DNA of 64,000 nt from Anaerolineae bacterium (GTDB lineage Bacteria; Chloroflexota; Anaerolineae; DRVO01): positions 1-64,000 of the forward strand of contig JABLXR010000013.1 in assembly GCA_013178015.1 (NCBI GenBank), read 5' to 3'. Position numbers and translations under genes: made by a program. Under the pieces are notes generated by a model, which saw only the letters and a program-made list of their open reading frames with translations, made no database searches and was not told the origin of the DNA. Of this stretch, positions 13,779 through 28,087 are shown one piece after another; within the stretch, counting starts at the first letter, position 1; every line of letters begins with the position of its first letter.

Positions 13779-15440
13779 TCACAGGTACCCCAGGTCACGC
13801 AGCCTCGACCCCACGATCTCCTCGTACTCTTCGTCCGTCTCTGGCGCGCCGCGACCTCTCAGGGGCGGCTGCCGATAGACGGGGCGCTCAGCCGGGGCGG
13901 ACCCCGCCTCCAGGGCGCCCTGAAGCACTTGGCCGTCCATGTCCTCGGGCACGGCCACTCCGGCCAGGTGGAGGAGGGTGGGCGCCAAGTCCACGATGCG
14001 AGCCCCCTCCAGCCGGTGCCCGGCCCGAATGCCCTCCCCGGCCAGGATGAACAGGCCCTGGTAGCGGTTGTTCCCTTTCCAGCGCCAGCTGCGGGCGAAG
14101 ACCTCCGCCTGCCCCAGGCCAGCCCGGTTGTGATAAGCGTCCTCGTCCAGCACCACCAGGTCAGGGGCCTGATCCAGGTGACTCCCCGAGTAGATCTCCT
14201 CCCGCCGGAAGACCCGCCGTACCACCGGTGTCCCGGTGTCGGGATCCAGCAACTTCCCCAATCTCTCGATCAACTCCTCCCGCAGCCGCTCGTACTCCTC
14301 TCCCTCGCCCACCAGACCTCGATTTATGTAGACGGGACCCTGGGGCAGGGCGAAAGCTCGGGTGCGGCTCCAATCCACTCGGTCCACGGCGGACTGGTTC
14401 CCGTACTCGCCGAACCCGCCGGTGCTCTGGGGCAACATGCTGCCGTAGCGGACCAGCGTCTCGTAGGAGAACAGGCGCGTTAGCCCCAGGCCCTGCACCA
14501 GCCGGCCCACTCGAGACCGGTTGATGCCCAGCCGGGGGAGAATGTCCAGCGGGTGGAAGCGGGTGTGTAGGTAGCCGTTCTGCCGCAACCACACGTTGAG
14601 GAAGTAGGCCTTGCGCACCGGCTCGGTGCCGTGGTCGGAGAGAATGAGAGTGTAGTCGAACCGCGGCACCAGGCGGCCCAGCCACCGGTCCACCGTCTGC
14701 CACGCCTCGAGGGTAGAGCGCCCGTCGTAGAAGAAGTGCTGCAATCGGTTGATGTCGAAGCTGGTTACGCACAGGAACGGCACCGGGTCCCGGTCGAGCA
14801 GGTACTCGCCGGCGGCGAAGGTGCGGTCCACCGTGTCCAGGATCTCCCGCACCAAGGGACTGTCCTCCCCGCCTTCCTGCAGGTCGCCCTTGATCACCGG
14901 CCGGTATCCCACGGCCCGGCGCAGCTCGGGCTCCAGATGGGCGGGGTAGGTGTAGCCCTCCTCGCCGGCGCTGGGGCCGCCGCACACCATGAACCCGTCC
15001 AGCGGCTGGGGGGGATAGGTGTCCGGCATGCCCACCACCCCGGCCCTGTAGCCAGCCGCGTTGAGGTAGTGCCAGAGATCGGCAGAGTCGACGTCGGCAG
15101 CACTGGGGGTGATCACCCGCCGGCTGCGGACGTCCAGCTGCTGATGCCAGAACACCCCTAGCTTGCCCGGCCCCTTGCCGGTGGAGAAGGCCCGCCAGGC
15201 GGGCATGGTGACTGGCGGGATAGAGCTGGCCAGCTCGCCACTGGTGCCGCCCTCGATGAGAGCTCGCAGGTGAGGCAGGCGTCCCTCATCCAGCCACCTA
15301 CCGATGAGGTTGAAGGAAGCCCCATCCAGGCCCACGGCCAGGATGCAGGGTCTGTCGCGGTCGTTCGTCGCATCAGCCAAGTCATTCTCCTCTCTATCCC
15401 GGCACCAGCGGTCCTGCGCGGTGGGCCCTCGAATGGTCAC
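13779..15440 (-). CDS. Alkaline-phosphatase-superfamily protein with degenerate metal site
   Basis: A 553-residue type I phosphodiesterase/nucleotide pyrophosphatase-like protein. It keeps the first Asp (GLDGAS), a Thr nucleophile (VTMPAW) and SDHG. Two other expected ligands are changed: the D-x(3)-H motif reads NRLQH, and the late GTHR-type His reads GNNR. Metal site 1 would lose two of three ligands, suggesting a pseudoenzyme or altered chemistry. The C-terminus RLRDLGYL matches two other AP paralogues here. The frame opens at GTG 15440, overlapping the deacetylase stop by four bases. A TTG near 15381 lies behind GAGAGGAG and would put LADATNDRD at the N-terminus, so the true start is uncertain. 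Confidence 0.8.
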   Translation of the reverse strand: MTIRGPTAQDRWCRDREENDLADATNDRDRPCILAVGLDGASFNLIGRWLDEGRLPHLRALIEGGTSGELASSIPPVTMPAWRAFSTGKGPGKLGVFWHQQLDVRSRRVITPSAADVDSADLWHYLNAAGYRAGVVGMPDTYPPQPLDGFMVCGGPSAGEEGYTYPAHLEPELRRAVGYRPVIKGDLQEGGEDSPLVREILDTVDRTFAAGEYLLDRDPVPFLCVTSFDINRLQHFFYDGRSTLEAWQTVDRWLGRLVPRFDYTLILSDHGTEPVRKAYFLNVWLRQNGYLHTRFHPLDILPRLGINRSRVGRLVQGLGLTRLFSYETLVRYGSMLPQSTGGFGEYGNQSAVDRVDWSRTRAFALPQGPVYINRGLVGEGEEYERLREELIERLGKLLDPDTGTPVVRRVFRREEIYSGSHLDQAPDLVVLDEDAYHNRAGLGQAEVFARSWRWKGNNRYQGLFILAGEGIRAGHRLEGARIVDLAPTLLHLAGVAVPEDMDGQVLQGALEAGSAPAERPVYRQPPLRGRGAPETDEEYEEIVGSRLRDLGYL

Positions 15441-16276
15441 ACGGTGTCCAGCAGTTCCTCCAGTGGGCCCAGCCGGAAGTCGTCCAGCAGCCGCTCCAGC
15501 TTGGGCCGCAAGGTGCGCCGGCCGTGGCGGTGAGTGATCCGCTCTCTAGGCGTCACTGGATGGTCGGGTTGGGCCAGGTCCAGCTCCCAGGGGTGCAGGT
15601 ACAGCACTATGGGTAGCCCCTCGTCCACGATCCGGCGTAGCGCCCAGCGGACCAGCGGGTAGGGCCACAGCCTGAGGTAGAACCCACCTCCTACCGGCAG
15701 CCGGGTCGGGCCTAGCCTCAGCGTCGAGATGGGAAACTCGACCAACCCGCCATTGCCACCCACTCGATGCGGTGCGCGGGGTGCTCCCGGATAGCCATAC
15801 AACCGCGAACGGGCGGGGAACACGCTGCTGTCGTAGCTCAGGCCCCGGCTGCGGATGATCTCAAAGGCCCAGGAAGTGCTGCCGTTGAGGGAGAAGTAGG
15901 GCGCCCGGTGACCGAGTATCTCTCGCCCGGCCGCCTCGCGCACGGCCTCCAGGCCACGGTCCAACTCCTCCCCGAACTCCATCGGCGTCATCCGAGTAAG
16001 GAAGCGGTGCCGGTAGCCGTGAACGCCGACCTCGTGTCCGGCCTCCACCACCCTGCGGATCAGATCCGGGTGCCTTTCCGCCACCGCCCCCAGGACGAAG
16101 AACGTGGCCCGGACCTCCCGCTGCGCGAGCAGGCCGAGGAGCTGTTCCGTGGCCGGCACCACCCGGCTCCCCAGGTGCGGCCACAGGTCCACGCGGGGAT
16201 TGGTGCTCGTCAGCCCCTGGAACCACTCCTCCAGGTCCACCGTGAGAGCCCCTTGGATGTCGCCAGAACCGGGCAT
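15437..16276 (-). CDS. Exosortase (XrtA)-type polysaccharide deacetylase
   Basis: A 279-residue NodB-fold polysaccharide deacetylase. Motifs: TVDLEEWF (metal-binding Asp), HGYRHRF (the His pair), GHRAPYFS and LHPWELD near the C-terminus. The order and spacing, with the PVGGGFYLRL and LHPWELD blocks in the C-terminal extension (DUF3473-like), match the deacetylases of XrtA/PEP-CTERM exopolysaccharide loci rather than chitin deacetylases. It should remove N-acetyl groups from a polysaccharide intermediate. No signal peptide is seen. It starts two bases after the DUF2304-AP gene stops and overlaps the next gene start, so it is tightly coupled. No exosortase gene is visible in the window. Confidence 0.88.
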   Translation of the reverse strand: MPGSGDIQGALTVDLEEWFQGLTSTNPRVDLWPHLGSRVVPATEQLLGLLAQREVRATFFVLGAVAERHPDLIRRVVEAGHEVGVHGYRHRFLTRMTPMEFGEELDRGLEAVREAAGREILGHRAPYFSLNGSTSWAFEIIRSRGLSYDSSVFPARSRLYGYPGAPRAPHRVGGNGGLVEFPISTLRLGPTRLPVGGGFYLRLWPYPLVRWALRRIVDEGLPIVLYLHPWELDLAQPDHPVTPRERITHRHGRRTLRPKLERLLDDFRLGPLEELLDTV

Positions 16277-16278
16277 GC

Positions 16279-27243: not shown

Positions 27244-27322
27244 TTTGACCTTACCTCTGTCTCAAGTCCTGTTCGCCCGTCTCCGAGGTTGCCCTCGTTA
27301 GCTAGCGCCAGGCTAGGGTAGT

Positions 27323-28087
27323 CTAGGTTCCGGCAAGTAGGGCTGCCACCACGGGGGTGGTGCCGATGGTGCGCAGGCTCAGGACGAGAATCACCACGCC
27401 AACAGCGGCCATCAGCGCCCGGGCAGGGACGCGGCTGCAGGCGAGCGCCGCCAAGGGCGCCGCCACCACCCCACCCAGCAGCAGACCAAGCGTCACCTGC
27501 CATCCCGTCAAGCCGATGGCCAGAAGAAAGGTCACCGACTGAGCCAAGGTGACGAAGAACTCGCTCGAGTTCACCGAGCCGATGGTCTTTCGCGGCGAGC
27601 CACCCCGGGCCACTAGGGTCGAGGTGACGATGGGGCCCCAGCCCCCTCCACCGATGGCATCACAGAGGCCGCCCAGAAGACCCAGCGGCACCACTCCCGC
27701 GCCGAGATTCGGCCTGGGCTGGTAGCGCCGCAGTGCCTTCACCAGGATGAGCAACCCCATGGCCGCCAAGTAGACGGCCACCACAGGGCGGATGACATCG
27801 GTCGGCACCGAGACCAGTATGTACGCCCCTATCACACCTCCCAGCACCCCTGGCGCCAGCAGGCGCCAGAACAGCGCCCGATCCACGTTGCCGAGTCGCC
27901 AGTGGGAAACCCCGGAGACGGCCGTGGTGAAGACCTCAGCGGTATGAACGCTGGCGCTGGCCGCCGCCGGCGGCACTCCCATAGCCAGCAAGAAGGTGGT
28001 ACAGGTGACTCCGTACGCCATGCCCAGCGCGCCGTCAACCATTTGGGCCAGAAAGCCAACAACTGCAGCAATAACCACGGTCTCCAT
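27323..28087 (-). CDS. TauE/SafE (TSUP) family permease
   Basis: A 254-residue membrane protein with about eight hydrophobic segments. The N-terminal AAVVGFLAQMVDGALGMAYG and the internal GLLGGLCDAIGGGGWGP are the two diagnostic TSUP half-repeats. The family moves sulfite, sulfoacetate or other sulfur and carbon anions across the inner membrane. Its place 79 bp upstream of the ATP sulfurylase/APS kinase gene supports a sulfur anion, probably sulfate uptake or sulfite export. As first gene of the unit it is preceded by a 310-nt leader from the promoter at 28406-28434. Confidence 0.88.
   Translation of the reverse strand: METVVIAAVVGFLAQMVDGALGMAYGVTCTTFLLAMGVPPAAASASVHTAEVFTTAVSGVSHWRLGNVDRALFWRLLAPGVLGGVIGAYILVSVPTDVIRPVVAVYLAAMGLLILVKALRRYQPRPNLGAGVVPLGLLGGLCDAIGGGGWGPIVTSTLVARGGSPRKTIGSVNSSEFFVTLAQSVTFLLAIGLTGWQVTLGLLLGGVVAAPLAALACSRVPARALMAAVGVVILVLSLRTIGTTPVVAALLAGT

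What the first reader, a model, noticed from the sequence alone, without database searches (positions are those of the whole stretch)
13779..28087. Four AP-superfamily proteins beside PAPS synthesis and exosortase-type polysaccharide genes
Four related phosphodiesterase/sulfatase-fold proteins share one transcription unit with a fused ATP sulfurylase/APS kinase, a TSUP permease, an XrtA-type polysaccharide deacetylase, a GT2 enzyme and FemAB-like acyltransferases. The window has no sulfotransferase and no PAPS reductase. Inference: the unit makes a modified, possibly sulfated, surface polysaccharide, and the AP proteins add, move or remove the modification. I do not know of this combination as a described system.
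Basis: partly seen in the sequence, partly recalled or inferred. Interest (0 to 1): 0.75.

Follow-up and report, generated by a model that had tools for sequence, protein, structure and literature searches.

The report
Phosphodiesterase-fold partner of sulfate activation
One of the four related enzymes in this gene run belongs to a lineage that, across one bacterial phylum, sits beside or is fused to the enzymes that make activated sulfate, and it most likely clears the by-product pyrophosphate; the polysaccharide genes next to it are a separate module that merely lies alongside here.

Summary
In detail: four PF01663 (NPP/alkaline-phosphatase-fold) proteins lie in one tight minus-strand run with TSUP, fused Sat-CysC, DUF3604, GT2 and an XrtA-type deacetylase. 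Genome comparison splits the run into two modules. (i) A PAPS module. AP4 orthologues form one clade with a conserved active site. In 44 of 60 neighbourhoods they are within 3 kb of, or fused to, ATP sulfurylase and/or APS kinase; 14 are Sat-AP4 fusions, one AP4-CysC. All 85 class genomes with AP4 also have Sat/CysC. AP3 follows in 12 of the 60, always in linked loci. (ii) A polysaccharide module (GT2-DUF2304-AP2-deacetylase-FemAB-TPR-lipoprotein-MFS) that recurs without Sat/AP4/AP3 and lies 486 kb from AP4 in one single-contig genome. The genome has no exosortase, no true CysH and one sulfotransferase gene elsewhere. Best mechanism: AP4 hydrolyses the PPi made by ATP sulfurylase, pulling PAPS synthesis, as the syntenic, assayed archaeal enzyme TON_1705 does. 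AP3 may be a pAp phosphatase (weaker). That the AP proteins add or remove sulfate is not supported for AP4/AP3.

The parts
27323..28087 (-). TSUP (TauE/SafE) permease, candidate sulfate/sulfite carrier of the PAPS module
   Evidence: PF01925 9.5e-40; homologues next to Sat in L055, L067, L082 and in the AP4 loci L160, L161
25462..27243 (-). Fused ATP sulfurylase-APS kinase (Sat-CysC), makes PAPS
   Evidence: NF004040 842 bits; fused form common in the class
23922..25460 (-). AP4: cytoplasmic NPP-fold phosphohydrolase, proposed inorganic pyrophosphatase of the PAPS module
   Evidence: PF01663 8.6e-43; linked or fused to Sat/CysC in 44/60 loci; active-site D14 T52 D208 H212 D264 H265 H415 invariant or nearly so; AF2 pLDDT 93.3, nearest folds ENPP1/Xac NPP
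22558..23925 (-). AP3: cytoplasmic AP-fold protein with Ser in the nucleophile position, second phosphohydrolase of the PAPS module (candidate pAp phosphatase)
   Evidence: PF01663 4.9e-41; orthologues in 12 of 60 AP4 loci, only in linked ones, mostly right after CysC; 100%-supported clade
19222..22494 (-). Secreted DUF3604 protein with Thr/Pro-rich spacers
   Evidence: PF12228 5.2e-20; N-terminal hydrophobic segment; not part of either conserved module
18350..19270 (-). GT2 glycosyltransferase
   Evidence: PF00535 6.6e-25; conserved directly upstream of DUF2304/AP2 in relatives
16279..18432 (-). AP2: DUF2304 membrane domain fused to an NPP-fold domain, polysaccharide module
   Evidence: PF10066 + PF01663; orthologues in L010, L011, L217-L221 without Sat/AP4
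15437..16276 (-). XrtA-type polysaccharide deacetylase
   Evidence: PF11959, PF01522, TIGR03006 264.6 bits
13779..15440 (-). AP1: NPP-fold protein with two substituted metal ligands, possibly inactive or altered
   Evidence: PF01663 5.4e-31; N231 and N458 at ligand positions
12765..13757 (-). Secreted lipoprotein-like protein of the polysaccharide module
   Evidence: homologues after TPR in L010, L218, L219
3788..12754 (-). Giant TPR membrane protein of the polysaccharide module
   Evidence: TPR models; homologues next to AP2/deacetylase/FemAB in relatives
384..1418 (-). FemAB/GNAT-like acyltransferase of the polysaccharide module
   Evidence: PF13480 1.4e-16; homologues follow the deacetylase in L010, L217-L220

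Best explanation
The run is two independently conserved modules placed end to end. The upstream module (TSUP, Sat-CysC, AP4, AP3) imports sulfate and makes PAPS in the cytoplasm. AP4, a cytoplasmic NPP-fold phosphohydrolase of the alkaline-phosphatase superfamily, hydrolyses the pyrophosphate released by ATP sulfurylase and so pulls a reaction with a very unfavourable equilibrium; that is why it is so often fused to Sat. AP3 probably handles another by-product, most likely 3'-phosphoadenosine 5'-phosphate (pAp). The downstream module (GT2, DUF2304-AP2, deacetylase, AP1, lipoprotein, TPR, MFS, FemAB) builds or modifies a surface polysaccharide and occurs without the PAPS module elsewhere. With no CysH in the genome and one sulfotransferase gene on another contig, the PAPS is probably used for sulfation; whether this polysaccharide is the acceptor is open. 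Shown: gene content, conservation, linkage, fusions, intact AP4 active site. Inferred: substrates, localisation, transcription unit, sulfation.
For: 44 of 60 AP4 neighbourhoods carry Sat and/or CysC within 3 kb on the same strand or in the same protein; 15 are fusions, three checked by Pfam: L130 and L182 Sat+Phosphodiest, L185 Phosphodiest+APS kinase. Gene order varies (Sat-AP4-CysC, AP4-CysC-AP3-Sat, AP4-SatCysC, SatCysC-AP4), which argues for selected linkage. 85/85 AP4 genomes have Sat/CysC against 130/213 of the rest (Fisher p 2e-15, uncorrected for relatedness). AP4 is one clade with support 100; catalytic residues kept. Flanks of the module are unrelated genes, so its function should lie within PAPS synthesis. 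The archaeal cluster ATP sulfurylase / DHH pApase / type I phosphodiesterase-NPP / APS kinase with a TauE neighbour has similar content (PMC8268124); its T. onnurineus member TON_1705 was assayed as an inorganic pyrophosphatase (kcat 2.1 per s, Km 18.8 uM, PMC9653972 table; PMC4463584). Eukaryotic ATP sulfurylase-pyrophosphatase fusions exist, with the same pulling argument (PMC2275785). The polysaccharide module recurs without Sat/AP4/AP3 (L010, L217-L221), 486 kb from AP4 in single-contig G250. CysH over cut-off is absent in the genome and in 37 of 50 genomes searched, nearly all AP4-positive.
Against: NPP enzymes with a Thr nucleophile are usually phosphodiesterases, and ENPP1 makes PPi instead of cleaving it (general knowledge). 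Homology of AP4 to TON_1705 rests on family name and synteny; the archaeal sequence could not be fetched, and the original paper is not held. 16 of 60 AP4 loci have no Sat nearby, several beside polysaccharide or sulfatase-like genes. In the one congener the Sat-CysC gene is not followed by AP4 (L225). The pAp role of AP3 rests on gene position and a Ser nucleophile only.
Confidence: 0.57

Rival explanations
1. AP4 acts on APS/PAPS or pAp (a quality-control hydrolase or pAp phosphatase that limits toxic by-products) and does not act on PPi.
For: NPP-fold enzymes act on nucleotide anhydrides; nearest solved folds are ENPP1 with AMP and Xac NPP. AP4 is next to CysC about as often as next to Sat and is fused to CysC in L185. 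No DHH/CysQ-type pApase was noticed beside the module.
Against: Fusion is mostly to Sat, whose products are APS and PPi; destroying APS or PAPS in the complex that makes it would be futile. The archaeal cluster member is an assayed PPase and a separate pApase is present there.
Confidence: 0.2
2. One reading: the AP proteins add, move or remove sulfate on the polysaccharide built by the neighbouring genes, all as one pathway.
For: Shared run with gaps of -83 to +79 bp; AP2-like genes lie within 2-9 kb of Sat in G035, G067 and G128 and near AP4/Wzx in L187-L190; one sulfotransferase but no CysH in the genome.
Against: Polysaccharide module with AP2 recurs without Sat/AP4 (L010, L217-L221) and is 486 kb away in G250; of the listed AP2 matches I found only three others within about 10 kb of a listed Sat match; AP1, AP3 and AP4 have no signal peptide or membrane segment.
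Confidence: 0.13
3. AP4 and/or AP3 is itself a sulfotransferase that uses PAPS or APS as donor, in place of a classical sulfotransferase.
For: AP4 takes the place directly after Sat-CysC where other genomes have a sulfotransferase-like gene (c3 family in 10 of 40 Sat-CysC loci, none of 60 AP4 loci); AP superfamily enzymes handle sulfuryl groups; 19 of 50 genomes had no PF13469 match.
Against: No AP-fold PAPS-dependent sulfotransferase is known to me; the archaeal counterpart hydrolyses PPi; 31 of 50 genomes do have PF13469 sulfotransferases, and other sulfotransferase families were not counted.
Confidence: 0.08

Closest known systems
Archaeal sulfate-activation cluster (Pyrococcus yayanosii PYCH_17520-17560, T. 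onnurineus TON_1704-1707)
   Same: ATP sulfurylase, APS kinase, type I phosphodiesterase/NPP protein and a TauE neighbour in one cluster (PMC8268124, PMC4463584)
   Different: Archaeal cluster has a CopG regulator, a DHH pApase and separate Sat and CysC; here Sat-CysC is fused, AP3 stands where a pApase might be expected, and relatives fuse Sat directly to AP4
Eukaryotic ATP sulfurylase-inorganic pyrophosphatase fusions (diatoms, Phytophthora, haptophytes)
   Same: Covalent coupling of Sat to a PPi-removing domain (PMC2275785)
   Different: The paper calls the fused domain inorganic pyrophosphatase; here the domain is of the alkaline-phosphatase superfamily, so the solution would be convergent
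Chloroflexus aurantiacus Caur_2113/2114 (Sat-CysC plus sulfotransferase)
   Same: Fused Sat-CysC (PMC3150298); sulfotransferase-linked Sat-CysC loci also seen here (L055 and others)
   Different: Window has no adjacent sulfotransferase and has AP4/AP3 instead
XrtA (exosortase) associated EPS loci
   Same: TIGR03006-type deacetylase, FemAB, TPR, GT2
   Different: No exosortase in the genome; deacetylase scores under the equivalog cut-off

Membership tests
Type I phosphodiesterase / NPP branch of the alkaline-phosphatase superfamily (AP4) | PF01663 above cut-off and conserved D, T/S, D, H, D, H, H bimetal site | tested here: met
   147.7 bits against cut-off 23; residues invariant or nearly so in 69-75 orthologues; fold match to NPPs
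Archaeal-type sulfate-activation cluster | ATP sulfurylase, APS kinase and NPP-type protein linked | tested here: met
   window order and 44/60 loci
Archaeal-type sulfate-activation cluster | DHH-type pApase in the cluster | tested here: not met
   no DHH-family protein among the scanned genes of the window run
Archaeal-type sulfate-activation cluster | NPP-type protein orthologous to TON_1705/PYCH_17550 | not testable with these tools
Inorganic pyrophosphatase (function) | hydrolysis of PPi | not testable with these tools
   needs an assay
XrtA/exosortase EPS locus | exosortase (PF09721) in the genome | tested here: not met
   no match in G000; genome 95% complete in 97 contigs
XrtA/exosortase EPS locus | TIGR03006 deacetylase above cut-off | tested here: inconclusive
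   264.6 bits against 276.2
Assimilatory sulfate reduction via PAPS | CysH (NF002537) above cut-off | tested here: not met
   own best 50 bits against 154, in a 785-aa protein that is not CysH
PAPS-dependent sulfation locus | sulfotransferase beside Sat-CysC | tested here: not met
   none in the window with the Sat-adjacent profile; one PF13469 gene on another contig

The most novel reading that the evidence does not exclude
AP4 (and AP3) is a new class of PAPS- or APS-dependent sulfotransferase built on the alkaline-phosphatase fold, channelled by direct fusion to ATP sulfurylase, replacing classical sulfotransferases in part of this phylum.
Probability: 0.07. Interest if true: 0.85.

Novelty: new variant of a known kind. 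Interest (0 to 1): 0.5.

Why it matters
ATP sulfurylase is held back by its equilibrium. A dedicated alkaline-phosphatase-fold domain fused to Sat in many lineages of one bacterial phylum would be a bacterial, convergent counterpart of the eukaryotic Sat-pyrophosphatase fusions. It would give a testable function to a group of proteins now annotated only as 'alkaline phosphatase family', and would mark PAPS pathways that serve sulfation and not reduction.

Tried and rejected
One functional pathway for all four AP proteins: rejected because AP2 and AP4/AP3 separate in relatives. The PAPS_reduct match on C19 as CysH: rejected, a 785-aa protein among large ATPase-type genes, far under the CysH cut-off. 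GT2 in the 245-aa frame: wrong frame. Solved-structure sequence search for AP4: no hit. Haloarchaeal plasmid homologues: 27-32% identity, no Sat beside the three inspected. Ascamycin cluster 'sulfatase' AcmG as a relative: only a literature lead, not comparable here. Fetching the archaeal TON_1705-type sequence: no route found. The AP3 model is only moderate (pLDDT 76), so its fold ranking (SPAP alkaline phosphatase first) is weak evidence.

Full report
Observation. The window is the first 64 kb of contig C13 (90.5 kb) of a 4.57-Mb, 97-contig genome, 95% complete. Relatives recovered by a direct scan are labelled Chloroflexi and Anaerolineae. Four PF01663 proteins lie on the minus strand at 13779-15440 (AP1), 16279-18432 (AP2, with DUF2304), 22558-23925 (AP3) and 23922-25460 (AP4), with fused Sat-CysC, TSUP, DUF3604, GT2 and an XrtA-type deacetylase. 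Neighbouring genes overlap or are at most 79 bp apart. The four are related at 25-35% identity, so they are old paralogues, not a recent local duplication.

AP4 belongs with PAPS synthesis. A search of 298 genomes of the class with AP4 found 98 with a match at 1e-45, 85 of them at 1e-90 or better. All 85 have Sat/CysC, against 130 of 213 others (Fisher p 2e-15; genomes are related, so this overstates independence). I fetched 40 class and 20 wider-phylum neighbourhoods. In 44 of 60, Sat and/or CysC lies within 3 kb on the same strand or in the same protein; 36 have both. Fourteen are Sat-AP4 fusions and one is an AP4-CysC fusion; Pfam confirms the architecture in L130, L182 and L185. Gene order differs between lineages. 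AP4 forms one clade with 100% SH-aLRT support, and so does AP3 (quick tree, long branches noted). The sample was chosen for AP4 matches, not for Sat, so the linkage rate is not built in by selection.

What AP4 looks like. No hydrophobic segment was found in AP1, AP3 or AP4, so they are probably cytoplasmic. AP4 keeps D14, T52, D208, H212, D264, H265 and H415, plus several invariant arginines (R74, R76, R166, R209, R319, R327, R391). Its model is confident (pLDDT 93.3) and the nearest solved folds are ENPP1 and Xac NPP at about 15% identity. AP1 has Asn at two ligand positions.

Function. The flanks of the Sat-AP4-CysC unit are unrelated genes, so the function should lie inside PAPS synthesis. 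Sat makes APS and PPi with an unfavourable equilibrium; several eukaryotes fuse Sat to inorganic pyrophosphatase, and the authors give this as the reason (PMC2275785). In archaea a cluster of ATP sulfurylase, DHH pApase, type I phosphodiesterase/NPP and APS kinase, with a TauE gene beside it, is described (PMC8268124). In the same gene order, T. onnurineus TON_1705 is the pyrophosphatase (PMC4463584), with reported kcat 2.1 per s and Km 18.8 uM (PMC9653972). I therefore take PPi hydrolysis as the most likely activity of AP4. That TON_1705 is of the PF01663 family is inferred from its position and the annotation of PYCH_17550; I could not compare sequences.

AP3 follows in 12 of the 60 loci, always linked ones. 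It has Ser at the nucleophile position and its moderate model ranks an alkaline phosphatase first. It may do the pApase's work; this is a guess from position.

The polysaccharide module. GT2, DUF2304, AP2, deacetylase, FemAB, TPR and the lipoprotein recur in L010, L218 and L219, and most of them in L217, with parts in L011, L012, L220 and L221, without AP1, AP3, AP4, DUF3604 or Sat. In single-contig G250 the AP2 gene lies 486 kb from AP4; in G093 AP2 and Sat-CysC are on different contigs. The genome has no exosortase. In the only congener searched, Sat-CysC is not followed by AP4.

Fate of PAPS. A true CysH is absent from the genome and from 37 of the 50 genomes searched with that model; the one PAPS_reduct-domain protein is not CysH. 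One PF13469 sulfotransferase sits on C27 near a sulfatase-like gene. So PAPS is probably used for sulfation, but the acceptor is unknown. In other class genomes a sulfotransferase-like family is found near Sat-CysC (10 of 40 loci), and none is found in the 60 AP4 loci.

Verdict. The AP/sulfate link is real and widespread, but the described system is a juxtaposition of two modules. AP4 is best read as a PPi-clearing partner of ATP sulfurylase: a bacterial, often fused variant of an arrangement known from archaea.

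Noticed in passing
L199:11189-13042: APS kinase fused to a sulfatase-family domain (617 aa, PF01583 + PF00884), directly after Sat and AP4.
   Followed up: partly
L139, L141, L142, L143: A sulfatase-like gene without the CxPxR motif in the inspected N-terminal part lies divergently next to the AP4 unit, in three of these loci where no Sat is adjacent.
   Followed up: partly
window 13779-15440: AP1 has Asn at two aligned metal-ligand positions, so it may be inactive or have a changed role.
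   Followed up: partly
window 33017-37090: One 1357-aa ORF matches YfhO in its N-terminal part and a Wzx-type flippase in its C-terminal part.
   Followed up: no
L062, L065, L066, L071, L072, L073: A second, separate APS kinase homologue lies just after the fused Sat-CysC.
   Followed up: no
L088:15350-17707 (C19 of the same genome): 785-aa protein with a PAPS_reduct domain among large ATPase-like genes; perhaps a phosphorothioation- or defence-type locus, not sulfate reduction.
   Followed up: partly
G000 C19:6805-9077 and C68:9331-11603: PF01663 matches with identical scores in opposite order on two contigs, which suggests a duplicated or redundant assembly stretch.
   Followed up: no
L204 (Halopiger plasmid pHALXA01 36623-45642): Two AP-family proteins with glycosyltransferases, a sulfatase and a PAPS-reductase-family protein in one haloarchaeal stretch.
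   Followed up: no
L225 (congener G025): Sat-CysC at 87% identity is followed by unrelated genes and not by AP4, so the window's arrangement is not fixed within the genus; the contig is only 3.3 kb.
   Followed up: yes
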